IMG/VR virus record: IMGVR_UViG_3300018018_000099
Location: 1-39,724 of that record
DNA from: a virus
Reading direction: 5' to 3' (one strand)
DNA: 39,724 nt
Part shown: one piece after another, positions 1,814 to 38,873 of the stretch
Layout: every line of letters starts with the position of its first letter
Numbering within the stretch: position 1 is the first letter of the stretch
Translations under genes and position numbers: made by a program
Notes under the pieces: generated by a model
Told to the model about the DNA's origin: nothing
Database searches by the model: none
The model's input: the letters and a program-made list of their open reading frames with translations, nothing else

Positions 1814-1858
1814 GTGAGCCGCCAGGGAATCGAACCCTGAACCTGCTGATTAAGAGTC
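1814..1858. other. attL: displaced 3' part of tRNA-Lys
   Basis: This 45-bp sequence is identical to 38800-38844. Read on the minus strand it is the tRNA-Lys sequence from the anticodon loop to the 3' end. The similarity stops sharply at both ends. It is therefore the original chromosomal 3' end of the tRNA, pushed away when the phage entered and supplied its own copy. Confidence 0.95.
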
Positions 1859-13205: not shown

Positions 13206-13448
13206 CTACTTTTTCTTGCGCCCTTTGGAAAATCCGCGCATCCTCTTGGCGAGATTCAAGGCAGACAATAGAGATTCCTCATCCGGTGTCAACCCTGCCC
13301 CCCCGACTTCCCGAGTTTTCTTATGCAATAATGCTATCTCCGCGTCTATCTTCTCCGGGGGAATTGTCTCGCCTTCCTTAACGCCGAAATGTTTTCTCAG
13401 TCTCCCTTCAGCGCCGATAGCCCCTTGAATCCATAATTTCTTTGCCAT
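13206..13448 (-). CDS. Small basic hypothetical protein (80 aa)
   Basis: 80 residues with a strongly basic C-terminus (RMRGFSKGRKKK) and RKHFGVKEGETIPPEKI. AGTAGGTGAACA precedes ATG 13448. It lies among head-completion genes. It may bind DNA or the inside of the capsid, but that is only inferred from its charge. Confidence 0.65.
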   Translation of the reverse strand: MAKKLWIQGAIGAEGRLRKHFGVKEGETIPPEKIDAEIALLHKKTREVGGAGLTPDEESLLSALNLAKRMRGFSKGRKKK

Positions 13449-13646: not shown

Positions 13647-14045
13647 TTAGGTATTAAACTTTGAACTTGAATAGGGCTTATCGTAACCCCCTACTCCGAA
13701 CATTATTTTGATGCCTAGTTCCCCACAGACTTCTTTCTCAGGCAGATTATTTATGTCCCAGGTATCGCCACCTTTGGCAAAGATGTCCGGCTTATAGAGT
13801 CGCAGGGAAGATTTGCAAGTAATGTCCGTATCTATGTTCTCTACCACCTGGCCTCTTCCCCTCAGTCCCCATTCCAAGATTTGTTTTCTGGCTTGATAAG
13901 GGATGACGCATTTACCTTTCTTTTTGATTAGTTGGTCGTCCCGAGCCAGAATGATTATTATTTCACCGAGCTTTAGAGTCTCCTCTATATGCTTGATATG
14001 TCCTGGGTGTATCGGGTCAAATCCGCCAGCGATTGCTACTTTCAC
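13647..14045 (-). CDS. Cytidylyltransferase-like nucleotidyltransferase (132 aa)
   Basis: Small HxGH-superfamily nucleotidyltransferase. AGGFDPIHPGHIKHI carries the HPGH signature at residues 13-16, and the length matches glycerol-3-phosphate cytidylyltransferase and the HldE/RfaE C-terminal domain. It would load a phosphorylated sugar or polyol onto CMP or AMP. The start overlaps the stop of the glycosyltransferase gene by ATGA, so the two are made together and probably share a pathway: an activated sugar made here and transferred there. The nucleotide and sugar are not clear. The typical ISST(R/S) loop near the C-terminus is altered to KPYSSSKF. Confidence 0.85.
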   Translation of the reverse strand: MKVAIAGGFDPIHPGHIKHIEETLKLGEIIIILARDDQLIKKKGKCVIPYQARKQILEWGLRGRGQVVENIDTDITCKSSLRLYKPDIFAKGGDTWDINNLPEKEVCGELGIKIMFGVGGYDKPYSSSKFNT

Positions 14046-15325
14046 TTCTTAATGCACCAGTGCTGGTCAAAGACGACCAACCCCGCTTCTTTCAACCACT
14101 CGTTTATATGTTTACTGTGGTCAAAGTGCATCGGGCTTATTTCATGTTCCCAGAAGCAATCATAATGATAGAACCTGGCACCTTCCTTCATTCCCGATCC
14201 TATCTTCAAGAGAAAGCTACGTAAGTCCTCTATGTGTTCCAGGGTGTCTATGACGATGATGAGGTCGAACTTTTCTATCTCTGGAAATTCGCTGGTGAAC
14301 TTCACATTTCTGGCTCCCAGTTTGTTAGCTCTGAACCTCGCAAAGTCTAATGCCTTCTCGCTGATGTCATACCCGACCAGGTTCTTATTTTCCCAGCAGA
14401 GTTCCAAGAGAGTAGTCCCTATGCCACAGCCGATGTCGAGGATGTGTAAATGCTCGGCGTTCTTGATCCCAGCCATCCTTTGTTCCTTATAAAAGGTTGC
14501 TGAATTAAACCCCACTAAGTCATAAAGGTAGAGCTGACCAATTTCGGGGTCTTTGTAGAATTCCTCTACTGTGCCTTGCCAATCCTTCCACTTATCAGCC
14601 AGTTGCTTGGTCGCTATGGCTTGTGGCATAAGGTCTTTTGTCCCCAGATATTCAGCAAGGTCATTCCAGATATCCTGTTTCTCTGGCTTCCATGTCATGT
14701 TTTCTATGGCTTCTCTGGTCGTGTAGATTTTTTCCTTCAGATGGGAAAGTTGAATCCCGGTATGGGCATAAACCTTTGCCCCAGCCTGTCTAACCTTATT
14801 GCAAAAGTCCCAATCTTCGCTGATAAAGATGTTTTCGTATTTCCCATCCTCAAAGACTGGGCAACATTCCGACCAGTTTCCTTTATTAAGAACGGGCATA
14901 TCCTTCGTGATTTTCTCAAGAATATTACGAGTGATACCAACGAAGCCTGTCGAGACAAACTGGACTTCCTCCAAATCGCCTGAGATGTGGAATTGCCCAT
15001 TCCAGCCCCTTTGAGCTAAGAATGCCCCTCCCCTGACTGGATATAGCCCACCTACAACGTCTAAACCGCCATTCAGGGCATCTAGTAACTTCTCTATATC
15101 TTCGACCCTAAAGATGATGTCCCCATCAAGGAATATCAGATAGGGTGCACAGTTTTTCTTTAAGAATTGGTAGGCTACTATGCTTCGACTTCGGCTTATG
15201 AGTGCGTCCCCTGTTTGGAACCACCACTCGAACCTGTGATTTGTGTTGTGTAACTTCTCTACACAGGTAATTGTTTCTACAGTAACCTGTCCGTAAGAAC
15301 AGGTGTATAGAACGAAATCTAGCAT
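14042..15325 (-). CDS. Glycosyltransferase-methyltransferase fusion (427 aa)
   Basis: Two enzymes in one chain. Residues 1-215 resemble a GT-A glycosyltransferase: PYLIFLDGDI holds a DxD-type metal site at 67-69, and ISEDWDFC at about 168-175 resembles the later acidic motif. From about 290 a class I methyltransferase follows, with LDIGCGIGTTLLEL (297-303 core), VGYDISEKALDFAR and VIDTLEH. It lies between capsid genes and connectors and is coupled to the nucleotidyltransferase gene. It could add and methylate a sugar on capsid or fibre proteins, or alter a host surface glycan. The target is not visible. Confidence 0.85.
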   Translation of the reverse strand: MLDFVLYTCSYGQVTVETITCVEKLHNTNHRFEWWFQTGDALISRSRSIVAYQFLKKNCAPYLIFLDGDIIFRVEDIEKLLDALNGGLDVVGGLYPVRGGAFLAQRGWNGQFHISGDLEEVQFVSTGFVGITRNILEKITKDMPVLNKGNWSECCPVFEDGKYENIFISEDWDFCNKVRQAGAKVYAHTGIQLSHLKEKIYTTREAIENMTWKPEKQDIWNDLAEYLGTKDLMPQAIATKQLADKWKDWQGTVEEFYKDPEIGQLYLYDLVGFNSATFYKEQRMAGIKNAEHLHILDIGCGIGTTLLELCWENKNLVGYDISEKALDFARFRANKLGARNVKFTSEFPEIEKFDLIIVIDTLEHIEDLRSFLLKIGSGMKEGARFYHYDCFWEHEISPMHFDHSKHINEWLKEAGLVVFDQHWCIKK

Positions 15326-15338
15326 AGCAGCCTCCTGG

Positions 15339-15761
15339 TTACGGAATTATGTAGTCTACGTAGACATCCCCTACGAGACTATCGGCGTTAGCAGCTACAT
15401 CCACGCCAACGAGTAAGAAGGCGTTTGTAGTAGTGCCCTTAGGTGATAGCCGGCAATTGCAGTTTATGCCAGCAGCGGGTCCAGTCACACTGTGGCCAAT
15501 GTTCAACGCATTGGTATTGAGAAGATACCCCGCAGCGTTCAGAACATTATCGCTGGCGTTGTCGCCTATGCCTACCACTAATTGTGAAGCTGCCTCCGCT
15601 ACCGTTCTGATTTCCGCCACTACCTTATCAACGAGGATAATCGCATCTTCAGGGTTTTCGAGAGTGGCAGCATTACCGGCAGCATTAGCATTGCTTATTG
15701 CTAACTTGAGCAGTCCCCTACGGACAACTGATGTCTGTCCTAAGCTATACAATGTTCCCAT
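15339..15761 (-). CDS. Capsid-associated protein, possible decoration protein (140 aa)
   Basis: 140 residues, very rich in Ala, Asn and Val, with short beta strands and no charged linker. It follows the major capsid gene directly, the usual place of a decoration or cement protein. AAAGGAGAAC precedes ATG 15761. The single Cys pair (NCNCRL) is a small oddity. Family not recognised; the role is inferred from position. Confidence 0.6.
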   Translation of the reverse strand: MGTLYSLGQTSVVRRGLLKLAISNANAAGNAATLENPEDAIILVDKVVAEIRTVAEAASQLVVGIGDNASDNVLNAAGYLLNTNALNIGHSVTGPAAGINCNCRLSPKGTTTNAFLLVGVDVAANADSLVGDVYVDYIIP

Positions 15762-15784: not shown

Positions 15785-15807
15785 AGGGGGTTTAAGCTAG
15801 TCCCCCT
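15785..15807 (-). other. Hairpin just after the major capsid gene
   Basis: AGGGGG and CCCCCT arms with an 11-nt loop lie directly behind the capsid stop. There is no T tract, so this is more likely an RNA-stabilising 3' hairpin or a weak terminator than a full stop. Confidence 0.5.
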
Positions 15808-16799
15808 TAACTGGTAGCATCTATCGCCGTTGTCTGGCAAATGCTATGAATACGAGCCACAGATGTGGTTGCACCCATCGCCAGGGCAACATAACAGTAA
15901 GCTCGGATGCCCTCAGCGTTGTAGTCCTCCAGTTTGTCAAAGTGATCGACCTCGAAGAAATCTTTTCCACCGGTTGAACCGCCAACAACGAGGCTGACAC
16001 CGCCATCTTCAATAGACCCGGTTCTGATAGCGTAAACGCTCACCAGGGCTGTGGAAGCCTTCCCGCCGGTGTTGTCGGTCTCGGTAGTCATAAAATCCGA
16101 TACGACAATGGGAATACCATTGACGAAGGAAATCATTTTGCCGAACTCGTCTGGTTGCCGAGCCATCACAATAGCCCCAGCCTTGCCCATCGAGTAGATG
16201 AACAACTTGTCTTGAATTGTCCCAGGCATCAGGATGAAACTCGGTCTTGGTTTGCACGCCCTTATAAGTCCGAGCAGGGCTGCGATTGACAGACCAACAG
16301 TTCCACCGCCCATGTCATAGTCTTGGTAAGTAGCCCAGGCATTATGACCGCCGGTGGCAGCACAAAGCTTGTCCAACCCATCAAACTGCTTGGGGTATGT
16401 GGTTGCATTGCCATAAATGAGCTGGTCCTCAATAGTTCTCAGTGCTCCTTTTATGATTTGAGCCTGAATAACCCCTCTGTAATCATTGGGGTCTTTGTAG
16501 GTCTCCTGAGCACCCTTGACCAATGCCCACTGGTCACCATATTCCTTTAATCCCAGAGTAACCTGGGAGTAGGTGGCTACTTCCTTCCACCCATATTGCT
16601 CGCCCTTCGACTTTTCAGAGATGCTAGGCTGTGTTCCCTCTCGGTTCCACTTTAGTGTATAAGCATCAACGGTTGTGACTGGCAATCGGGGTAAAAGTTG
16701 GCCAACCTCATAGACCTGTTGAACAACACCGGGCAATAGTTTTGATTGCGTCAGCTTGTTCATTTCGTCTGGACTTGAAAAATATCCAGTAATTGCCAT
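15807..16799 (-). CDS. Major capsid protein
   Basis: 330 residues, the normal size for an HK97-fold capsid protein without a delta domain. It begins MAITGYFSSPDEMNKLTQSK and contains a long helix-like segment (EQYGWKEVATYSQVTLGLKE) and a conserved-style late region (FILMPGTIQDKLFI, GIPIVVSDFM). It lies immediately after the scaffold gene, with AGGAGGATTCAC before ATG 16799. No N-terminal delta domain or protease gene is present, which agrees with a separate scaffold. The assignment rests on size, order and general resemblance. Confidence 0.85.
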   Translation of the reverse strand: MAITGYFSSPDEMNKLTQSKLLPGVVQQVYEVGQLLPRLPVTTVDAYTLKWNREGTQPSISEKSKGEQYGWKEVATYSQVTLGLKEYGDQWALVKGAQETYKDPNDYRGVIQAQIIKGALRTIEDQLIYGNATTYPKQFDGLDKLCAATGGHNAWATYQDYDMGGGTVGLSIAALLGLIRACKPRPSFILMPGTIQDKLFIYSMGKAGAIVMARQPDEFGKMISFVNGIPIVVSDFMTTETDNTGGKASTALVSVYAIRTGSIEDGGVSLVVGGSTGGKDFFEVDHFDKLEDYNAEGIRAYCYVALAMGATTSVARIHSICQTTAIDATS

Positions 16800-16817: not shown

Positions 16818-17513
16818 TTATTTTTCTTTTCGGAAGGTATCAGCATAAATCTGTGGTGCTGATTTGCCCGCCGTAGATTCTTTATGGCCAGATGTCACAC
16901 CAGAGTCAACTTTAAGAGGTTCGCTTTCCGCTGGTCGTTTCAGCGTTTCGCTTATCCGTTTTGCGAGTGCCTTGGCTTGCTCAGCAGTTGTCAGGTTGAG
17001 ATCCTTCATCGTGTCCTTGAGAGTCACTGGGTTGACATTAAATTCAGCCCCGATTTCCCATAGTTCAATCTCTAACTGAGTTTCCTGGGCTGCTTTAAGA
17101 GCTTCGGCGTGTTCTGTCTTGTCACGCTCAAGTGCTGCCCTATCCTTCTTGAGTGCATCCCTTTCGGCTTGCAGATCTAGTTGGTTTTTCTCCCTAGCCT
17201 TCCGTTCCTGGTATGCAGTCAATTTAGTAGGGTCACGCCGGGCATCCTCTAATTCCGCTTCGTCTCTCCGCCTTTTAATGTCGTTTATCTCAGCCTCGTG
17301 AGCTTTGATAGCTTCATCTCTAGCATTAAGACTTGCCTCTTTGTCGGCTAGTGCCTTGGCATCCCTGCCCTTAGCAGCGAGGGCATCGCTTATCCTCTTG
17401 TTTACTTCGTCCTCGGTGTAAGTCTTGGTTGTTGGAGTAGTCCCCTCGGTTCCCTGAGAAGTCTGTCCAGGCTTCTGAAGAGAGTCCTCTGGTTTCCCTT
17501 TGGTTTCGTCCAT
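16818..17513 (-). CDS. Capsid scaffolding protein
   Basis: 231 residues. A disordered acidic N-terminus is followed by a long charged coiled coil (about 35-150), then a short folded segment (LWEIGAEFNVNPVTLKDTMK) and a basic tail. This is the usual build of phage scaffolds encoded next to the capsid gene. AAGGAGGTATAA precedes ATG 17513. A terminator stands just upstream, so scaffold and capsid may need readthrough or a separate promoter that I cannot see. Confidence 0.85.
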   Translation of the reverse strand: MDETKGKPEDSLQKPGQTSQGTEGTTPTTKTYTEDEVNKRISDALAAKGRDAKALADKEASLNARDEAIKAHEAEINDIKRRRDEAELEDARRDPTKLTAYQERKAREKNQLDLQAERDALKKDRAALERDKTEHAEALKAAQETQLEIELWEIGAEFNVNPVTLKDTMKDLNLTTAEQAKALAKRISETLKRPAESEPLKVDSGVTSGHKESTAGKSAPQIYADTFRKEK

Positions 17514-17794: not shown

Positions 17795-20700
17795 TTATTT
17801 ATTTCGCTTTGCAATTTCATCTTGATAGTATTCTATGCTCTTGTAGTTTGCAGTGCCTACCCATCCCCAGTTATCCATCGCCCAGTTAGTAAAGTCAGGA
17901 TGGAGTAAACGCCACAATTTAGCGTCAATGCTATTCCCGCCGTATTGACCAGCGAGTTTAGTATAGTCAAAGTAATCTGGTACTAGACTTTGGGGCGGCA
18001 ATCCTAGCCCCATCTGGCCTAATGAGATATTGAGTTCCTGACTCCACTTCACCACTAAGTCATAGGCTTGTTGAGTTTGTAACTTCCCACCATATCCCCA
18101 TAGAGCAAGCCTGGCATCATCTTCGGGATGAGAAGCCCGCCATTCTGCTCTCCAATCCTTTGATAAATCAGGATTATCTGTTAAGAATTGGTCTTTCTCA
18201 GCATCGGACAATCCCTGATATTGTGACCATAGTGTATGATATTCGGCTGGCACATCGGCTTCAGCCAGTTGATAAAGCGGTTTGTAAGGCAACTGCCAGT
18301 ATCCCAAACCTAATGTGTCCTTGTCCTCTGCTAATCTAACGAGAGCTGGGTCAAGTCCTGCCTGGTATTTCTTATCCGAGTACATCTGCCTGATCACGTT
18401 GTACATATCCTGACCCCATCTTGTGATGTAATCGTCAACCGCTTTATCCTTGGCATCCCAGTCATAGTCTCCTTTATCATTCGTGTAGTCTGAAAACATA
18501 ACCTGTTGATAATCGGCTAGGGCTAAATCAATGTTCCAGTCATATTTATTCCCCTTCGCTGCCTGCGAAGCGAAGTAGTCGTATATTTCTTGATAGTGAG
18601 GGTCTTTCTCTAAACTATCCAGCATCACACCATAGTTCTGCCCAGCATCGCCCCACGCCGTCCTGAGGTCTTTGGTATTAAGTTGCCCGCTTCTGATTTG
18701 CCCCATGAGGTCATTCCCTCTGTTATAGTAAATCGTCTGTTCCTCAGTCGTCCTCTGTGTCCATGCCTTCCACACGCCCGAACTCCGCAGAGCATTATCA
18801 GCCTGAGCCGTTGAGTAATAATTATTTAATTCGGGATACATTGATAAAAGTTCCGTCTGAAGTGGACCTGGCAACATACCCCATTCCAATTTGCCTTGTT
18901 TCTGAATATCAAGAATCTTCGTTAACTCATCCTGAGTAAAGTATTTAGCTAACGTATCTTTGGGAATCGTGTTAAGTATCTGGGTAGCCTGGTCATAGAA
19001 TTGCACCCAGGCACTTTCGGGAAATGTCCTGAGACCAAATAATTCCCCCGCAGCAGTCGCTACCCGCGCTGCTCCTTCGGGTATCTCATAGTCTCTGGCC
19101 CCACCGGGAATCATCCAGTTGATTCCTTGCTCCATCCAGATAGGTTCAAATCGGGTAGCGATATATTTAAGGTATTCCATTGGTGTCTCAATAGGATAGC
19201 CGAGATAATCTCTACCAGTGGCAAGTTCATACCCCACTCCCACCAGCGGTGAAGAACGAGAAAACCACCAGGAGACAAAGGGATTGTCTATCTTATTTAG
19301 AGAGCCATTCTTCATTATGCGAATCAGGTCTATCGGCTCTTTCCCGCCGATGCTCTCAATACAACCTAGAATGTTTCCTGCTAATCTCACCATACCGTAC
19401 CAGAACCCGCCGATGCCATAATTGTAGTTTCCAACCTTTATGCTCATAAACTGAGCCGATGGTTTCCATGTCGTTTCGCCAGTTATCGGGTCTGTTTGAA
19501 TACCAAACCCCTGCATGACGGAATCCCAGGCTTGCTCACTTGATTTGCCTTCCAAGGTTGATAATCCGTATTGCATACCCGCATACATCATTGCCCCAGC
19601 ACCTATCATTCCCCCGATAGCTTTTCTGGCCATGTCTCCTGTATAACCACCTCGAAATATGTCGGCCAACACCGTTAGGCAGGCTCTCGTATAGTTCGGT
19701 GCAAACCAAATAAAGGTCGTTTCTAATTGCTTTGTGATTATCGGCACACCTAAAGCTCTTGAATCAACAATGCCTGTCATCCTGTCCAGGAATCGAGCCA
19801 GTTCAAATTCCTTCCCTTGAGTAAGAGCTTTCGGAGATAGAATCTTCCAGAACTCATCTCTTACAATTTCCGTAGCCGAAGAAAAGGAAAGTTCCGCTCT
19901 TTGATAGATAGGTAACTTATCAAATAATCTTCCTAATCCCGATGAAGCCTCTAGCCGAAGATAATCACTTCCGATTGAACTTCCGCCAAAAGCTAATCTC
20001 TGTAAGATAGTATCTGAATTCTTTGCCATCAGTCTGAAGATGCCGTCAGGGTCGAAATATGCCCTTATAGAGTAACCGAGTGCCTTATACCAACTCCCCA
20101 TTAACTTCATGCCAGTCTGAGGGTCAACTAACATATAAGCATGAGCCATTCCCCAGGACGGCATACCCTGAATTGCCATAGCGGAAAGGTCTAAGGCAGC
20201 CTTAGTGATTCTCAGAATTCCCGCGACATCACCAACGACACTTAACCCTGGCAATCCCGCTTCACGCCCGAAGAACTTATTGAAGGCATCAATAAATTCC
20301 CTATCGTATATCTTCCCGCCGGCGAAAGGTTGCATGATGAATCCTTCTCCAAGACTGGGTTGCCTTACTTGCTCCATTGCAAAGGATTGAGCATTTCTGG
20401 CTTCCCAATAAGCACCTTTTCTAGTCTCGCCTAGTGTCTTGACTTCACCCTTGAGTGAATTGAACTCTGCCTTCAGGTCAGCGGCAGACTTCACTGGTGG
20501 TAAATCATAAGTTACCTTAGCAATTTGAGGTTTGCCTTCTAGCCCCTTAATTCCCTCTATCTGAGGCTTGATAACCACATCTGGCGGTGGCAATCCTGCC
20601 TGCTTGTGTAGTTCAACTAATTTGTTGTAGTCCTCTAGGGATAACTGGGTTAATTTGCCTTTCCCTGCTGGTTGCACAGAAGTTTCATAGCCAAAAATAT

Positions 20701-23700
20701 CCTTTTGTAATCCCGCCTCTGGCATCCCCGGGGCAGCCTTTGGAAAATACTCTGCGGTATTCTCCACATTGTCTAGCACCCCCAGAATCTTCCACATACT
20801 GTCTTTCCTCTTAGTAGCCTCGCCTATTAAGATACTGAGGTCATTTGCCTTGATCTTCAGAGTGCTTATTTGCTCTATCTTGTTGATAAGGTCTTGCTCA
20901 CCCATGTTGAAATGGTCGGCAAGTTCGTCTAGTACATATTCCCAAGGAACTCTACCCTCTTGATTTATGACTTCAGGAGCAACCTTAGCCCCCATTGTCA
21001 GCATTTCGGCTTGCTTGACCGTTACAGTCTCAGGCCATCTCCCACCCTTTAGTAATGATAGGAGGCTGGTTTCTTGTTCCCCTACATGACCGCGGTATGA
21101 TGCCACGGGGTCACTTGCCAGTGTTTCCCTTATCCCAGCAAGTTCATTACCTTGGTCACTAACCATCTTTTGAATATCCTCAAATTGGCTCGTAATCGTT
21201 GAACGGAAAGCTAATCTATCTTCCTGGGGCATTGTGCTAAAGACTGCGGTTAATTTCTCTGTATCGGGTAAGGCTTTTAGTGGTTCGAGTGCTACTGTCT
21301 CTTTTCTTTGCAGTGCTTCAGTTAATTGAGTGATGGTCTTTTGGTTCTCTGCCAATATGTCTCTTAATCCCTTTTCGCTAGTGTTGCCTCCCTCAACTAA
21401 AGTTCTTAACTTAGCCCCTTGCTCTGGGAATCGCCTCTCAATAGCTTTTAATGTCCCTTCGGGTAATGTTTCCCCCCTCATCGCCCTATTGATAACATCG
21501 CTGAAATGATTAACATTGGCCAGTTCTTCGGTTCTTAATACCGCCTTCCTTGCCAGTGTTCTGCCTTCGGCAGTGGGTATCTCCTCAAATAACTGTGGGT
21601 ATAGATTTAATAATCGCTCGCTTGGCGTTTGCCCTTCTTTGCCAAGTGTCTCTAATCCTTCGCCCACATAATTGATAAATCTATTATCTCCGACTTGCTT
21701 GAAAGCCTCTTGAAGATAGGTAGCCATTGAGGTTTCAGGATTGATGTTATATTTAATTCCATCGGCTATCCCCTCCGCCATTGTTTGATAAGCTCGATGC
21801 TTTTCATAAGAGGCTTTAGCCCCGATAGCCCTTGCTCCTATGCCTGGCTTTCCCCTAACTTCGATTATCTCGCCGGTGGGTGCTGTCTTGCCTTCCACGA
21901 CTCTGTGCATCCACCATTCGTCTAAGACATTCTGTGGCGCGATGCCCTCCTTCTTGAGCATATTAAGAATTTCAGTATTTAGTTCATGGAACTTGGTTAC
22001 ATACTGCAAACCTTTATCAAGATTCGCCCAGCTATACATCTCAGGGTGAGTGAACACGTGCTCTAGTGTTCCCGCTGCTTCTCTTTCTGATGCGTATTCT
22101 GGTAGTAATCGCTCAATCATCAAGGCTGATTCGGCTTTCTCATTAAACCCGAACAATTTAACAGGGTCGGAGACAATCGCCCTTAATTCCGATATGACAG
22201 GGAAAACGGCTTGCCTCCCCATCCTGGTGAATTCAACTTTTAAGACAGCTCCATGAGCCACCATATCTTCTATTGTGGTCGCCTCAGCATCGGTTATGAT
22301 TCTCCAGCCTAAAGTCTTCTCGATAATTGATTTTATCGGTGGAACCTTAGAAACCGTCTGCAAGGCACTCTTCATCCAGTTATCCTTCAATGTCGCTTGT
22401 AGAAGCTCATCGCTCCCCGGCAAGTCCATTAAAGTAACAAGGTGGTCACTTTCATTGAGTAGCTTTTTGGTCAGTTGTTCGCCTAAAGCAGCCCCCACTT
22501 TCTGCAACCCTTGAAGTCCTAATTCAAGAGGTTTCGTTATTGGATAAGCTATCCCTCTTTCAATCGCTTGCACTCCAGCTGCGGTCTTCATGGCAGCCTC
22601 GCCTATCACTGGAACTTTGCTTAATGATTCGGCTATCCCACCCGCTATATCCCCAACGGGGATTAAATAGATAGGATTCAGCCATTCCATAATCTCAACT
22701 GGCATCATAAAAGGCACCCTTTCCATTTGCCCCCACATGGATTCTTTAGTCTTATATCCTTGATATATCTGATTCGCTTCATCCGAAAAGACTGATGCCC
22801 AGCCATATTTGTCCCAGACTGTTTGCATATCTTGTGCTGTTTGCAAGGTATCGACATTGCTTCTTCCGAGTAAACCTTCCATAGCCAATTTCTGCCCCAG
22901 AATGAAAATTTGCCATGGTCTATCAATATACTTATTCCATGTGCTAGCAACCACACCAAAGGTTGCCAATGCAACGTCAGCAAAAGTTTTAGGGACCTGA
23001 GTAACAGTTTCAATCTTCTGTATATTCGCTTGCTCAATTCCCCCGGGTTTCTTGCCGAAGATTGTTGAGATAACATCTGAGATAGCGCCTGTTATCCCGC
23101 TCACTATATCCCCTATCTCTTGAGTGAGTTGCTGCCATATATTAGGTGCCGAGGTTACGGGAGTTTCGGTAGTTTCCCCGAATATCTGAGATATTTCCTC
23201 GTTGGTTATATCGGGATTAAGAGCTTTTAATAAAGTCTCGGTATCTGGAGTTCTGCCAATAGTCCTCAAATCGGTCAAAAATCCTTTGGGGTTGGTGTCA
23301 ATGTAGTTTAAGACTTCATCAACACTTTCCTGAGGAAAAACCTTGCCGAAGACTTGCTCAGTTTCGAGTTGTTGCTGCTCCTGTAGGTTGTACCATCCCG
23401 CGACATCTAGCACCCCTCCACCTTGCTGATATGTTTGATATGCTTGCTTTCCCTGGTCTGTCAAGTTATCTATGGTTAGAGGTGCCGTTGGTAACTCTTC
23501 ATTCGTCAGCCCACCTGTCGGCACACTTAGGAGCGCCTGCATATCCGCTTGTGAATACTTCTCTCCAGTCGGAGAGATGTAATTGTTATCCTGTGTAATT
23601 TCCCACTTTGAAGGCGTTATAAAGCTGATGCCATAACCAGACTGATCCTGATTCGGGGTCATCTTCAGCATCCAACCTTCCTGAAGCGAGAGCCCCATAT

Positions 23701-23908
23701 TTTGAGCCTCGCTGGGTGTGAAGAATAACGGCTGGGACGGGAAAGCAGTCGTAAGTTGTCTCTGCGAAATAGCAGTCGTAAGTTGGGGATACATCTCACG
23801 CACTTCTTTTAAGGAAGTACCATATTGGCTTAAAAGTCTTTCAATCTCCGTATCCTTGGCATCCCTGTATTGCGTCAGTAAGTTTTCTGCGTTTAAGTCA
23901 ATGCTCAT
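17795..23908 (-). CDS. Giant virion-associated protein, possible ejection protein (2037 aa)
   Basis: At 2037 residues it takes up about a sixth of the prophage. It begins MSIDLNAENLLTQYRDAKDT and is Gln-rich. Hydrophobic stretches occur at about 270-460 (DIVSGITGAISDVISTIFG, EWLNPIYLIPVGDIAGGI). A long helical middle follows, then at about 1450-1650 a segment resembling the large polyvalent-protein regions of other phages (TTFIWFAPNYTRACLTVLAD, GGMIGAGAMMYAGMQYGLS). The C-terminus is Asp/Tyr/Trp-rich. It lies between portal and scaffold and no tape measure exists, so a role as an internal protein ejected with the DNA is likely. No enzyme motif stands out. A 15-bp repeat at 23744 and 23771 gives two LTTA(F/I) copies. 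The start overlaps the previous stop (ATGA). Confidence 0.8.
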   Translation of the reverse strand: MSIDLNAENLLTQYRDAKDTEIERLLSQYGTSLKEVREMYPQLTTAISQRQLTTAFPSQPLFFTPSEAQNMGLSLQEGWMLKMTPNQDQSGYGISFITPSKWEITQDNNYISPTGEKYSQADMQALLSVPTGGLTNEELPTAPLTIDNLTDQGKQAYQTYQQGGGVLDVAGWYNLQEQQQLETEQVFGKVFPQESVDEVLNYIDTNPKGFLTDLRTIGRTPDTETLLKALNPDITNEEISQIFGETTETPVTSAPNIWQQLTQEIGDIVSGITGAISDVISTIFGKKPGGIEQANIQKIETVTQVPKTFADVALATFGVVASTWNKYIDRPWQIFILGQKLAMEGLLGRSNVDTLQTAQDMQTVWDKYGWASVFSDEANQIYQGYKTKESMWGQMERVPFMMPVEIMEWLNPIYLIPVGDIAGGIAESLSKVPVIGEAAMKTAAGVQAIERGIAYPITKPLELGLQGLQKVGAALGEQLTKKLLNESDHLVTLMDLPGSDELLQATLKDNWMKSALQTVSKVPPIKSIIEKTLGWRIITDAEATTIEDMVAHGAVLKVEFTRMGRQAVFPVISELRAIVSDPVKLFGFNEKAESALMIERLLPEYASEREAAGTLEHVFTHPEMYSWANLDKGLQYVTKFHELNTEILNMLKKEGIAPQNVLDEWWMHRVVEGKTAPTGEIIEVRGKPGIGARAIGAKASYEKHRAYQTMAEGIADGIKYNINPETSMATYLQEAFKQVGDNRFINYVGEGLETLGKEGQTPSERLLNLYPQLFEEIPTAEGRTLARKAVLRTEELANVNHFSDVINRAMRGETLPEGTLKAIERRFPEQGAKLRTLVEGGNTSEKGLRDILAENQKTITQLTEALQRKETVALEPLKALPDTEKLTAVFSTMPQEDRLAFRSTITSQFEDIQKMVSDQGNELAGIRETLASDPVASYRGHVGEQETSLLSLLKGGRWPETVTVKQAEMLTMGAKVAPEVINQEGRVPWEYVLDELADHFNMGEQDLINKIEQISTLKIKANDLSILIGEATKRKDSMWKILGVLDNVENTAEYFPKAAPGMPEAGLQKDIFGYETSVQPAGKGKLTQLSLEDYNKLVELHKQAGLPPPDVVIKPQIEGIKGLEGKPQIAKVTYDLPPVKSAADLKAEFNSLKGEVKTLGETRKGAYWEARNAQSFAMEQVRQPSLGEGFIMQPFAGGKIYDREFIDAFNKFFGREAGLPGLSVVGDVAGILRITKAALDLSAMAIQGMPSWGMAHAYMLVDPQTGMKLMGSWYKALGYSIRAYFDPDGIFRLMAKNSDTILQRLAFGGSSIGSDYLRLEASSGLGRLFDKLPIYQRAELSFSSATEIVRDEFWKILSPKALTQGKEFELARFLDRMTGIVDSRALGVPIITKQLETTFIWFAPNYTRACLTVLADIFRGGYTGDMARKAIGGMIGAGAMMYAGMQYGLSTLEGKSSEQAWDSVMQGFGIQTDPITGETTWKPSAQFMSIKVGNYNYGIGGFWYGMVRLAGNILGCIESIGGKEPIDLIRIMKNGSLNKIDNPFVSWWFSRSSPLVGVGYELATGRDYLGYPIETPMEYLKYIATRFEPIWMEQGINWMIPGGARDYEIPEGAARVATAAGELFGLRTFPESAWVQFYDQATQILNTIPKDTLAKYFTQDELTKILDIQKQGKLEWGMLPGPLQTELLSMYPELNNYYSTAQADNALRSSGVWKAWTQRTTEEQTIYYNRGNDLMGQIRSGQLNTKDLRTAWGDAGQNYGVMLDSLEKDPHYQEIYDYFASQAAKGNKYDWNIDLALADYQQVMFSDYTNDKGDYDWDAKDKAVDDYITRWGQDMYNVIRQMYSDKKYQAGLDPALVRLAEDKDTLGLGYWQLPYKPLYQLAEADVPAEYHTLWSQYQGLSDAEKDQFLTDNPDLSKDWRAEWRASHPEDDARLALWGYGGKLQTQQAYDLVVKWSQELNISLGQMGLGLPPQSLVPDYFDYTKLAGQYGGNSIDAKLWRLLHPDFTNWAMDNWGWVGTANYKSIEYYQDEIAKRNK

Positions 23909-26099: not shown

Positions 26100-27305
26100 C
26101 TAAAATTGCCACACAGGCATTATTTGCCCTGGAGTTGCCGTTGCAAAGCCAAACCGTTCTGTTAAGCCTAGAGAGCCATATCTCCCAGCGTCGCAAGAGT
26201 GGTCCCGAATCTTCACTGGCTCTTCCAGAACTTTGCCGTCTTTGTCTTTCTTACGGCTGTAGTTTCTAACTTCCTTGATGGTGTCCACACTTGACTTTGA
26301 TATATGCAAGGGTTGTCTTCTTACCAGGTCGAGCCCCATCTTCACATCTTTATTAGCCGGGTAAATAGTCCAGCCAGCCCTTGATATTTCCTCAATCCTG
26401 TCTGGCTCCGCCGAATCAGCATAGATATCGGCTTTATCCTCATGCGTAAGCCGTTCTATCAAGTCGGCATTGGTCAGCCCTGTTTGATATACCCGTTCAT
26501 CCCAATACAGCTTTTTATTTGATAGGATGACCTTAATTAGTGCTGTGGGGTTTACGAAGCCGAAATCTAAACCATAACCCCATGCCTGCCAATCACATTT
26601 AGGCGGTAACTCATCAACTATCTGAAAATCTGGCCAAATCAAGTTCTCCAGGTGCCCTAACAAACCTAATCCGTAGACATTCCACCAGTTTGCGTCTTTG
26701 CCTTTGTTGGACTCGATATTCTGGACAACTTCCTTTGGTAAGACTTTCAGAGCATCTAAGTAAGTGCTGTGGATATAGGCACTATCGGCTTCCTGTATCC
26801 AGCCCGGGATTTTCTTGCCCTGAGCCTCGTACATATGTACCCAAAACTCTGTCACCGGGTTCCAGTCCACGATAGTGAACTTAGATGTCCGTATGTCTAA
26901 AGCCCTTGCTGTCTCCCAGGGCACATTGTTGCCCTCATTGATGAACAGAATATCTCTTCTGGGACCGCGCACCTTGTCCGATTCGTCAGCCCCGAAGAAC
27001 TCTATCTTTGCCAGCCCGAAATCATATCTGAATAAAGTCTTGGACCACCGGGGGTTATTGTCCTCTGATTCACCGAGGACTCTGAAGAAGTCTCGGATAC
27101 AACCTCTCCGCAAATGAGGCAATGACTCTGAGGTAATCGTTGTAAGCAGAGGCGCCTTAGCCCCCTGAGATATTAGTATTAACGCTTGAAGGATTGACCA
27201 TGTTTTGCTTGACCAAGTACCCCCCTCATGCAGACAGCGCCTATATCCCCCTAACCATGCTTTAAGGGTATCCTCAAATACCCTTGTCGTCTCTAGTTGC
27301 ATCAC
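26100..27305 (-). CDS. terL: Terminase large subunit
   Basis: 401 residues. The ATPase half has a degenerate Walker A (EGGTWSSKT, 27-35), Walker B DILFINEGN (118-126) and a coupling-type FTIVDWNP. The nuclease half shows GYGLDFGFVNPTAL (Asp247), ADIYADSAEP (Asp297) and RDHSCDAGRYG (Asp368/372), the three-acid RNase H-like site. It packages DNA through the portal. It overlaps the small subunit gene by 32 bp. The start is GTG 27305 or ATG 27302. Confidence 0.92.
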   Translation of the reverse strand: MMQLETTRVFEDTLKAWLGGYRRCLHEGGTWSSKTWSILQALILISQGAKAPLLTTITSESLPHLRRGCIRDFFRVLGESEDNNPRWSKTLFRYDFGLAKIEFFGADESDKVRGPRRDILFINEGNNVPWETARALDIRTSKFTIVDWNPVTEFWVHMYEAQGKKIPGWIQEADSAYIHSTYLDALKVLPKEVVQNIESNKGKDANWWNVYGLGLLGHLENLIWPDFQIVDELPPKCDWQAWGYGLDFGFVNPTALIKVILSNKKLYWDERVYQTGLTNADLIERLTHEDKADIYADSAEPDRIEEISRAGWTIYPANKDVKMGLDLVRRQPLHISKSSVDTIKEVRNYSRKKDKDGKVLEEPVKIRDHSCDAGRYGSLGLTERFGFATATPGQIMPVWQF

Positions 27306-32685: not shown

Positions 32686-33234
32686 CTATCCCCATTGTTC
32701 CGCCATAACTTCAGCGATTGCCAAATATGTTCTGCTCCGATTTTTCCACCTATCAACACCTGGCGGTTCACGATGAACCTTATCAATAATTCCTTCGCCA
32801 CCAGAAGTCTTGCAAATTAAAGGTGGTAAATTTTTTAACCAGAGACACGTTGCCTTACTCTCAGCGATACCAAAATAGTAAGGCTGAATTATCTGGTCTG
32901 GCTTACGAAGCCTAGAGGATATAACGCCGATGGGATTCTCAATAGCTATCTTCTCTATCGGTACTGTCATTAGCAGAGCAACAAACATCAAGGCGTCCCA
33001 TTGTTCCTGTTTCTTATCCTTAAACCACCTCGCCCCACTGACTGCTAAATGAGTACACGGGGGGAAGGCGAGCATCATATCCCAGCCGTCATTGAGTACG
33101 TTGCGAACATCACCCTGGATGTGATTCCCCTCAATCTCTGTAGGCAATAAATCGCAACTCCAAGCATTATGTCCCTTATGCTTAAAGGCTTCCCTGACTA
33201 TCCCGCTAAATTCACACGCTATTAACACTTTCAT
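32686..33234 (-). CDS. Small C5-methyltransferase-like protein (182 aa)
   Basis: 182 residues. ACEFSGIVREAF resembles methyltransferase motif I, AFPPCTHLAVSGARWF carries the Pro-Cys catalytic motif IV, and AIENPIGVIS stands where ENV (motif VI) is expected. The target recognition domain and later motifs are missing, so the chain is about half the usual length. Phage proteins of this compact kind are common and often called cytosine methyltransferases. Activity on phage DNA, perhaps against host restriction, is possible but unproven. Distance to the next gene is about 50 bp. Confidence 0.7.
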   Translation of the reverse strand: MKVLIACEFSGIVREAFKHKGHNAWSCDLLPTEIEGNHIQGDVRNVLNDGWDMMLAFPPCTHLAVSGARWFKDKKQEQWDALMFVALLMTVPIEKIAIENPIGVISSRLRKPDQIIQPYYFGIAESKATCLWLKNLPPLICKTSGGEGIIDKVHREPPGVDRWKNRSRTYLAIAEVMAEQWG

Positions 33235-36840: not shown

Positions 36841-37067
36841 TTCACTACCTCCCGAATAACAGCATTGAATTTCTCATTAGCTTTTACTAACTGCATCACG
36901 CCCTCTGTTAAGACAGGATCGCCAGCGTTATGATGAAGTTGTCTCACTAATTCCGCAGAACCTAATTTAAGGAAAACATCAACCACAGCTTCAGATAGTC
37001 CTATTCTTACCCGCTTGTTCAATTTGCTCCTTTCCTGATGAGATTCAATAGATGTCGGTTTTGCCAT
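36837..37067 (-). CDS. Small hypothetical protein (76 aa)
   Basis: 76 residues from ATG 37067 ([20 protein letters not shown]). A longer frame would start inside the 12-bp repeat array, so the later ATG is preferred, although its ribosome-binding site (ACGGAA) is weak. Basic N-terminus, helical rest. It overlaps the previous gene by 49 bp. Function unknown. Confidence 0.6.
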
Positions 37068-37681
37068 TTCCGTTCGGCAGCCCCAGCGGCATCCCAAGCG
37101 GCAGCCCAAGCGGCATCCCTAGCGGCATCCCTAGCGGCATCCCAAGCGGCATCCCCAGCGGCATCCCTAGCGGCAGCCCAAGCGGCATCCCTAGCGGCAG
37201 CCCAAGCGGCATCCCTAGCGGCATCCCTAGCGGCATCCCTAGCGGCATCCCTAGCGGCATCCCTAGCGGCAGCCAATTTCTCCCGATTTTCTTCAGTTGG
37301 AAATTCCAGATATGTTTTAGCCGCCTCTAGTGCTTGGCGAGGCCGTTTATCAGTAGGATATTTCTTCTCAAAGATATGTAATACCCTCCAAGCACAATCT
37401 ATGGCAAATTGCTGGATTACCTTATTGGGAATTTCCTTAATTATCCTCATTTCAGAGGCACAGAATTTATCTTCGCCCTTTAGGATTTCCCCCCGTGCCT
37501 CACACATAAACCAACGAACACCGAAGATATTATTGAGACTATCAATAGGTTTCTGGCTGGCATGGAAACCACATCCACAAAGAGTTAATCTGCCTTCGCA
37601 CTTCTGCCACTTGCCGATTACCCATTGGATATACCCATGTTCACTCTTAAGGTCTCCCGTTACGAATCTATAACCTTTCAT
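37019..37681 (-). CDS. DUF7666-like protein with A-R-D-A repeats (220 aa)
   Basis: 220 residues. The first 125 ([37 protein letters not shown]) resemble the DUF7666-type domain found in many phages and actinobacteria. From about 136 to 199 come sixteen four-residue repeats of R/W/G-D/A-A-A, which would make a very regular Ala-rich helix. The array ends at [10 protein letters not shown]. Similar Ala-rich tails occur in putative immunity proteins, so an anti-toxin or anti-superinfection role is possible but not shown. GGGAGGGAGAA precedes ATG 37681. Confidence 0.75.
37085..37276. repeat. Sixteen 12-bp tandem repeats
   Basis: AGCGGCATCCCT and variants (CAT/CAG; last base T, A or C) repeat sixteen times. 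As the unit is a multiple of three, the array stays open in several frames on both strands, which creates long false reading frames. Confidence 0.95.
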
Positions 37682-37848: not shown

Positions 37849-38721
37849 TTATTCCGATTCAGCGTTTGCTGAGACGTTTTCAAATACCCTCCCTGGACTG
37901 TGCTTATGGTGAATCTCTATTACATCTTCCTCCAGAAGTGGCGTATAGTAATCAGCCGTGGTTTTTATGTCTGTGTGCCCCATAATTAACTGAAGTGCTC
38001 TCATGTTCCCACCGCTTCTCAGGTGATGAACCCCATGGGTTACCCTGAGTGTTTGAGGACCAAATCTTCTACCAGCGTCATAGCCAGATAAGATAAGGTA
38101 CTTCTTTACTATCTTATAAAAACCAGTCTCCCCTAGTGGCATATTTGCGTAGCGTGTTCCTTCTGTCCCATGAAAGACAAAGCCATCTTCATATGCCGGT
38201 AGGCTTAAGAGTAGGTCTCTAGTGACCGGGGACAGTGGAGCTACTCGATAGCCAGTCTTACCATGAATTACTACCCTATCATCCAGAATGTCTTTTCTTT
38301 TGAGTCCACAGCCCTCACCGCTACGGCAGGCTGTGTCAAGAAAGAAAACGATTATTGCCTTGTCTCTTGGGTTTGCATCTTGCACCCTCCAGGCTAGCAG
38401 ATTCAGATTTAGTTCGGTCAAAACAGGTTGAATTTCTCTACGAACCCGTGGTCGGGTTACCGACTTCATAAAATTAGCAGTTCCGAATCGTTTATGTGCA
38501 TAATTATCTGTAGCACGGAATGTCCGATAATAGGAATCGGCATTGTGGGGACCTTGGACAGTTGCAAGAAACTCCTGTATGATGTCGGGTTTTGGGGGGA
38601 ACTGTGGGGATAGTTGAATAAGTCGCTTAGTATGGCAATCATAGCCTCTTAGCGTTCTGGGAGATAGTTCCCTGAGCCTACAATTAGCCATGAAACTAGC
38701 GACAACCTCCGTTGTCCTCAT
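37849..38721 (-). CDS. int: Tyrosine-recombinase integrase
   Basis: 290 residues. An N-terminal SAM-like DNA-binding domain (about 1-85) is followed by the catalytic domain with Arg133 (ACRSGEG), Lys155 (HGKTGYRV), Arg226, His249 (MGHTDIKTTADYYT) and Tyr258 or 259. The first His of the usual HxxR box is Gln (QTLR, 223-226). It inserts the phage into tRNA-Lys at attR, about 80 bp away. AAAGGAG precedes ATG 38721. Only a weak TACAAT-like -10 is visible upstream; in the circular genome the promoter of the left-end HTH gene would read into it. Confidence 0.93.
   Translation of the reverse strand: MRTTEVVASFMANCRLRELSPRTLRGYDCHTKRLIQLSPQFPPKPDIIQEFLATVQGPHNADSYYRTFRATDNYAHKRFGTANFMKSVTRPRVRREIQPVLTELNLNLLAWRVQDANPRDKAIIVFFLDTACRSGEGCGLKRKDILDDRVVIHGKTGYRVAPLSPVTRDLLLSLPAYEDGFVFHGTEGTRYANMPLGETGFYKIVKKYLILSGYDAGRRFGPQTLRVTHGVHHLRSGGNMRALQLIMGHTDIKTTADYYTPLLEEDVIEIHHKHSPGRVFENVSANAESE

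Positions 38722-38799: not shown

Positions 38800-38873
<74 letters not shown>

What the first reader, a model, noticed from the sequence alone, without database searches (positions are those of the whole stretch)
13647..15325. Sugar activation, transfer and methylation genes inside the capsid block
An ATGA-coupled nucleotidyltransferase and a glycosyltransferase-methyltransferase fusion lie between capsid and connector genes, so they are expressed late with the virion. That points to glycosylation of capsid or fibres with a methylated sugar, rather than to host surface change in the lysogen. The fused enzyme pair is unusual.
Basis: partly seen in the sequence, partly recalled or inferred. Interest (0 to 1): 0.6.

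Follow-up and report, generated by a model that had tools for sequence, protein, structure and literature searches.

The report
Phage capsid-side sugar-decorating gene cassette
A prophage carries, just behind its capsid gene, a fused enzyme that probably attaches a sugar and then methylates it, and related uncultured phages keep versions of the sugar-attaching gene in the same spot, which suggests that they coat their particles with sugars.

Summary
14042-15325(-) encodes a 427-aa GT-A glycosyltransferase fused to a SAM-methyltransferase. 13647-14045(-) encodes a 132-aa cytidylyltransferase-fold protein that overlaps it by GTGA, not ATGA. The pair lies behind the major capsid gene of a ~37-kb prophage in tRNA-Lys. 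The 'connector' label is not confirmed.

The virion-directed reading is supported. Of 33 distinct viral contigs with a GT relative, 32 have a capsid gene 15-2284 nt upstream, and the capsid proteins belong to several families. GT-MT stays conserved (72%) where the capsid protein was exchanged (28%). The module varies: GT alone, GT-MT, GT+LicD-like, GT-LicD fusion, GT-MT+LicD-like, GT-MT with a NeuB-type set.

The nucleotidyltransferase is an optional extra, found directly behind GT-MT in only one other contig. The GT's best solved-structure match is STIV A197. GT-MT on a capsid glycan is known from chlorovirus A064R, and phage capsid glycosylation from mycobacteriophages. So this is a new variant of a known kind. 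Acceptor, sugar and chemistry are unproven, and remote GT relatives (30% identity or less) often lie outside head blocks.

The parts
14042..15325 (-). GT-MT fusion, 427 aa: GT-A domain about residues 1-210, SAM-methyltransferase about 250-427
13647..14045 (-). nucleotidyltransferase (NT), 132 aa, GTG start overlapping the GT-MT stop (GTGA); optional part of the cassette
15339..15761 (-). 140-aa protein between capsid gene and GT-MT, possible head decoration protein and possible acceptor; label by position only
   Evidence: no PHROGs, NCBIfam or PDB match; model pLDDT 58
15807..16799 (-). major capsid protein, epsilon15 gp7-like
   Evidence: phrog_212 E 4.2e-26; NF045672 E 5.1e-21
16818..17513 (-). 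probable scaffold protein (by position and charged sequence; no family match)
37849..38721 (-). integrase of the prophage
   Evidence: Phage_integrase E 1.6e-16
1814..1858 (.). left attachment repeat, 45 bp, identical to 38800-38844
38800..38844 (.). right attachment repeat inside tRNA-Lys(CTT) 38800-38873

Best explanation
A virion-glycan-writing cassette. The fused enzyme is made together with the head proteins. Its GT-A domain moves a sugar from a nucleotide-sugar onto a head protein (the capsid protein or the 140-aa protein encoded beside it) in the cytoplasm, and its fused SAM domain O-methylates that sugar as a cap. The NT, where present, makes the activated donor. In relatives the cap may instead or also be set by a LicD-like transferase, or the sugar may be a nonulosonate. 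Shown: genes, domains, conserved catalytic residues, conserved place near the capsid gene, purifying selection, swapping of modules. Inferred: enzyme activity, order of steps, acceptor, sugar, methylation of the sugar, late timing.
For: Capsid gene 15-2284 nt upstream of the GT in 32 of 33 distinct contigs, directly abutting in 7, behind capsid proteins of phrog_212, phrog_267 and a weakly matching phrog_283 type. A search started from the LicD-like protein gave 12 loci; of 7 that were not seeds of the query, 6 have the GT directly upstream or fused and a capsid gene further upstream. GT-MT 72% identical to L014 where the capsid protein is 28%. Tight gene spacing on one strand and no terminator-like site on that strand between 13400 and 17500. 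Best solved-structure match is STIV A197, an essential GT of a virus with a glycosylated capsid protein (PMC10551542 passages). GT plus C-terminal methyltransferase acting on a capsid glycan is known in PBCV-1 A064R (PMC5408694 passages). No predicted membrane segment.
Against: No acceptor, sugar or activity was shown. Remote GT relatives (30% identity or less) in annotated phages lie outside head blocks in 4 of 7 regions opened and in a fibre block in one. The 33 contigs were found by similarity and are partly close kin, so they are not 33 independent cases. One contig (L017) shows no capsid gene. The contigs with phrog_267-type capsid proteins lack the 140-aa protein, so no single acceptor is common to all except the capsid protein itself, which was exchanged in L014.
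Confidence: 0.7

Rival explanations
1. Host-surface modification: the enzymes alter a host polysaccharide, as lysogenic conversion or late superinfection exclusion, and merely ride in the late operon.
For: The element is temperate. Others proposed this role for phage LicD and GT genes (PMC8008677 passages). The LicD-like neighbours in relatives belong to a family known from wall polysaccharides.
Against: The GT keeps its place by the capsid gene through exchange of capsid types; no own promoter signal beyond chance; no membrane segment; no flippase or lipid-carrier GT named among the scanned ORFs.
Confidence: 0.17
2. DNA modification: the GT glycosylates modified bases of phage DNA and the methyltransferase acts on them.
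For: Phage GTs are known to modify DNA (stated in PMC12619734, passages); some remote GT relatives lie beside replication genes.
Against: No base-hypermodification gene was named among the prophage ORFs scanned (about nine small ORFs not scanned); the gene lies in the head block; a phrog_757 'DNA methyltransferase' at 32686-33234 is elsewhere and is no hypermodification enzyme by name.
Confidence: 0.06
3. Fibre or other tail-protein glycosylation: same chemistry, but the acceptor is one of the large downstream fibre-like proteins.
For: Large carbohydrate-binding-like virion proteins follow downstream (CBM96 and laminin-G-like domains); a remote GT relative lies in a fibre block with a second GT and an epimerase.
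Against: The constant neighbour over the 33 contigs is the capsid gene; the downstream fibre-like genes vary strongly between relatives.
Confidence: 0.07

Closest known systems
Chlorovirus PBCV-1 A064R
   Same: N-terminal GT-A domain of about 211 aa with DxD and C-terminal methyltransferase, acting on the major capsid glycan (PMC5408694 passages)
   Different: A064R is 638 aa with a middle domain and belongs to a eukaryotic algal virus; the phage protein is 427 aa and has no room for that domain; homology of the two was not shown here
STIV A197 (archaeal virus glycosyltransferase, 2c0n)
   Same: GT-A fold; best solved match of the GT domain; virus has a glycosylated capsid protein (PMC10551542 passages)
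   Different: A197 has no methyltransferase domain; 24% identity over 164 aligned residues; unrelated virus type; A197's own substrates are unknown
Mycobacteriophage capsid/tail-tube glycosylation (Che8 gp110, Corndog gp38, Myrna)
   Same: phage-encoded GTs decorating virion proteins (PMC12363180 and PMC12619734 passages)
   Different: no mycobacteriophage was among the 52 records matched by sequence; no methyltransferase fusion was mentioned in the passages read; the original paper (Freeman 2023) is not held
LicD and IspD enzymes of Flandersviridae
   Same: LicD-family enzyme in phages (PMC8008677 passages)
   Different: there in the replication module; here, in relatives of the window, next to or fused with the GT behind the capsid gene; Pfam LicD matches are short and partly below cut-off

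Membership tests
GT-A glycosyltransferases (A197-like) | GT-A fold | tested here: met
   Foldseek rank 1 2c0n E 1.9e-8; VIA Z 14.9, rmsd 3.8, 164 aligned; model pLDDT 75 with weak loops
GT-A glycosyltransferases (A197-like) | DxD metal motif and downstream acidic/His residues | tested here: met
   D67, D69, E170, D171, H195 invariant in 15 of 15 rows; roles recalled
GT-A glycosyltransferases (A197-like) | sugar transfer activity | not testable with these tools
   no assay
Class I SAM-methyltransferases | GxGxG motif I and Rossmann-like fold | tested here: met
   LDIGCGIGT at 296-304; Methyltransf_31 E 7.9e-17; VIA Z about 15 against O- and N-methyltransferases
Virion-glycosylating phage GTs | glycan on capsid or tail protein that depends on the GT | not testable with these tools
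   needs virions and MS
PBCV-1 A064R | GT-A N-terminus plus C-terminal methyltransferase | tested here: met
   A064R layout from PMC5408694
PBCV-1 A064R | additional middle domain (638 aa in all) | tested here: not met
   427 aa in all, about 40 aa between the domains; so it is not filed as an A064R homologue
Serotype-conversion (gtr) clusters | membrane GT with flippase and lipid-carrier GT partners | tested here: not met
   no membrane segment in GT-MT (maximum 19-residue hydropathy 1.25); no such partner named in the ORFs scanned; composition of gtr clusters is recalled
HldE-type heptose-1-phosphate adenylyltransferase (for the NT) | score above the curated TIGR02199 cut-off | tested here: not met
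   46.7 bits against 181.5; only the fold family is met (CTP_transf_like 47.2 bits against 21)

The most novel reading that the evidence does not exclude
Uncultured tailed phages carry a modular capsid-coating locus: a core GT kept behind the capsid gene, onto which capping or sugar-making modules (fused methyltransferase, adjacent or fused LicD-like transferase, nucleotidyltransferase, NeuB-type pathway) are swapped, so that lineages wear different, antigen-like capsid glycans while the capsid protein itself is exchanged beneath them.
Probability: 0.45. Interest if true: 0.65.

Novelty: new variant of a known kind. Interest (0 to 1): 0.5.

Why it matters
Virion glycosylation in phages rests on few worked cases. 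A capsid-linked GT that outlasts exchange of the capsid protein and carries interchangeable capping enzymes predicts sugar coats on many environmental phages, and gives a simple genomic marker (GT-MT or GT-LicD behind the capsid gene) by which to test it. It would also put phage capsid decoration beside that of chloroviruses and of the archaeal virus STIV.

Tried and rejected
NT as a fixed partner: rejected. Its own search gave 86 relatives (80 kept), mostly without this GT nearby; with HMMs for only three capsid types, a capsid gene was recognised in 3 of those 80 loci (L048, L055, L060), a lower bound. ATGA coupling: it is GTGA. Connector label: not supported. Structure of the 140-aa protein: pLDDT 58, so no fold search was run; its profile found no solved structure. 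Host identity: not resolved; the genome-contig scan gave one methyltransferase-domain hit only. Ser/Thr tails as acceptor: capsid C-termini were printed; close relatives of the window end in a short S/T-containing tail, phrog_267-type ones do not share it; nothing is claimed from this. PBCV-1 A064R was not among the listed profile or fold matches; a missing match shows nothing. Literature: the listings showed no paper on a GT-MT or GT-LicD fusion beside a phage capsid gene; only passages of seven papers were read, and most subscription papers are not held. NeuB in phage DLP4 lies in a lysis module (PMC6469090 passages). PMC8402811 (passages) concerns a host-derived lipid glycan and was set aside.

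Full report
Observation. The two genes are real and lie at the stated coordinates. The fusion is 427 aa. Its C-terminal part is a class I methyltransferase (Methyltransf_31, E 7.9e-17). Its N-terminal part is seen only weakly by Pfam's Glycos_transf_2 (E 0.0023) but matches phrog_1574 (E 2.2e-15) and the solved glycosyltransferase A197 of the archaeal virus STIV, by profile (E 1.4e-5) and by fold (rank 1, E 1.9e-8; Z 14.9 over model residues 2-203). The model has mean pLDDT 75 with weak stretches at 41-44, 96-112, 144-169 and 196-210. D67, D69, E170, D171 and H195 are invariant in all 15 aligned rows; their catalytic roles are recalled from GT-A enzymes. The second gene is a 132-aa cytidylyltransferase-fold protein (E 3.3e-12), nearest in NCBIfam to the adenylyltransferase domain for heptose-1-phosphate but far below that model's cut-off. 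The two genes overlap by GTGA.

Setting. The window is a 39.7-kb virus record. A 45-bp repeat at 1814-1858 and 38800-38844 matches the 3' part of tRNA-Lys, an integrase lies beside it, and arginase-like and M50-CBS genes lie outside on the left; so it is a prophage of about 37 kb. On the minus strand run terminase (26100-27305), a 572-aa protein in the portal position without a family match, a 2037-aa protein, a probable scaffold, the major capsid protein (15807-16799), a 140-aa protein, GT-MT, NT and later virion genes. Thirteen nucleotides separate the 140-aa gene and GT-MT. A simple scan found one promoter-like site on that strand (15574-15546) and no terminator-like site on it between 13400 and 17500; promoter-like sites in all were 9 against 5.9 (sd 2.2) in shuffles.

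Relatives. The GT-MT protein found 18 loci in viral contigs, an alignment 26 and a wider alignment 28. A LicD alignment found 12 loci. The loci held then (122, of which L001 and L021 were left out) were scanned with HMMs for GT, MT, NT, LicD-like protein, the 140-aa protein and three capsid types. The table has 39 GT rows, which are 33 distinct contigs once 6 duplicate loci (L033, L035, L036, L037, L041, L055) are taken out. A capsid gene lies upstream in 32 of 33, at 15-2284 nt; the exception is L017, a 6-kb contig. In seven contigs (L019, L024, L025, L026, L028, L029, L031) nothing lies between capsid gene and GT (15-59 nt). Of ten proteins checked against PHROGs, nine were capsid proteins (L018 weakly, E 5.1e-5) and one, from L017, had no match; two further ones were capsid-like (L034 strongly, L042 with E 3.5e-6). 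Of the 12 LicD loci, 5 were seeds of that query; of the other 7, 6 have the GT directly upstream or fused (all but L043).

Modules. Architectures are GT alone (L028), GT-MT (the window and most others), GT followed by a LicD-like gene (L019, L027, L029, L030, L031, L034), GT-LicD in one ORF (L038, L039, L040), and GT-MT followed by a LicD-like gene (L013, L042). Pfam's LicD matches are short, some below cut-off, and the L042 protein had none. L026 carries, behind GT-MT, a second GT, NeuB, a CTP_transf_3 protein, an aminotransferase and a radical-SAM protein; L025 also has NeuB. The NT lies directly behind GT-MT in the window and in one other contig (84% identity), and four genes behind the LicD-like gene in L019 (44%). 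On a GT tree of 28 rows the fewest changes are 3 for capsid type (27 rows labelled), 3 for MT and 6 for LicD. Capsid-type labels for L018, L032 and L042 are uncertain, and L032 sits on a very long branch.

Selection. The window against L002, the least saturated pair for GT-MT, gives dN/dS 0.067 for GT-MT and 0.070 for the capsid gene; most other pairs are saturated at silent sites. Against L014 the capsid protein is 28% identical, the 140-aa protein 61% and GT-MT 72%; against L022 they are 56%, 54% and 71%. GT-MT therefore persists over exchanged capsid proteins.

Against. In annotated phages the GT-MT protein matched 52 records and a stand-alone GT 48, all under 60% identity. Of seven regions opened, MW202691 has the GT between the P22 coat gene and the P22 tail accessory gene (HMM E 6.6e-17; a methyltransferase match of E 0.0035, below cut-off), and MW202476 has it between portal and sheath genes. 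Synechococcus phage ACG-2014f has it in a tail-fibre block with another GT and an epimerase. OP947162, DLP_6, Cr30 and MW202481 have it elsewhere. The head link is thus a feature of the clade found by these searches (28% identity and above to the window protein), not of the whole GT superfamily.

Mechanism and comparison. The best reading is a virion-glycan writer: transfer by the GT domain, capping by the fused methyltransferase, donor supply by NT where present. Chlorovirus A064R shows the same GT-to-MT order and acts on the capsid glycan (PMC5408694, passages). A197 is an essential GT of a virus with a glycosylated capsid protein, its substrates still unknown (PMC10551542, passages). Mycobacteriophages glycosylate capsid and tail-tube proteins with their own GTs (PMC12363180 and PMC12619734, passages). 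The acceptor remains open between the capsid protein and the 140-aa protein; the latter was not detected in the phrog_267-type contigs.

Verdict. A real, conserved and modular cassette; a new variant of known virion glycosylation, not a new category.

Noticed in passing
window 13206-13448 (-): An 80-aa protein matches Pfam Fusello_VP2_Capsid (E 7.3e-6, 26.7 bits, just under the cut-off of 27), a family named for an archaeal spindle-virus DNA-binding virion protein.
   Followed up: no
window 17795-23908 (-): A 2037-aa protein between the portal position and the scaffold has no PHROGs match; its ends recur weakly in relatives.
   Followed up: no
L026 10162-15868 and L025 10513-11212: Nonulosonate-type sugar genes (NeuB, CTP_transf_3, aminotransferase, second GT, radical SAM) directly downstream of GT-MT behind the capsid gene.
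   Followed up: partly
L017 3738-3926, L019 10328-10558, L028 9630-10224, L029 9747-10004: Small zinc-ribbon-like proteins (begin MP-I/L-Y, with C-x2-C pairs) recur near the cassette; resemblance to FmdB-type ribbons is recalled, not tested.
   Followed up: no
window 37019-37681 (-): Protein with DUF7666 and Imm5-like domains beside the integrase.
   Followed up: no
L022 6062-6924 and L023 7120-7982: The 140-aa gene between capsid and GT-MT is duplicated in tandem.
   Followed up: no
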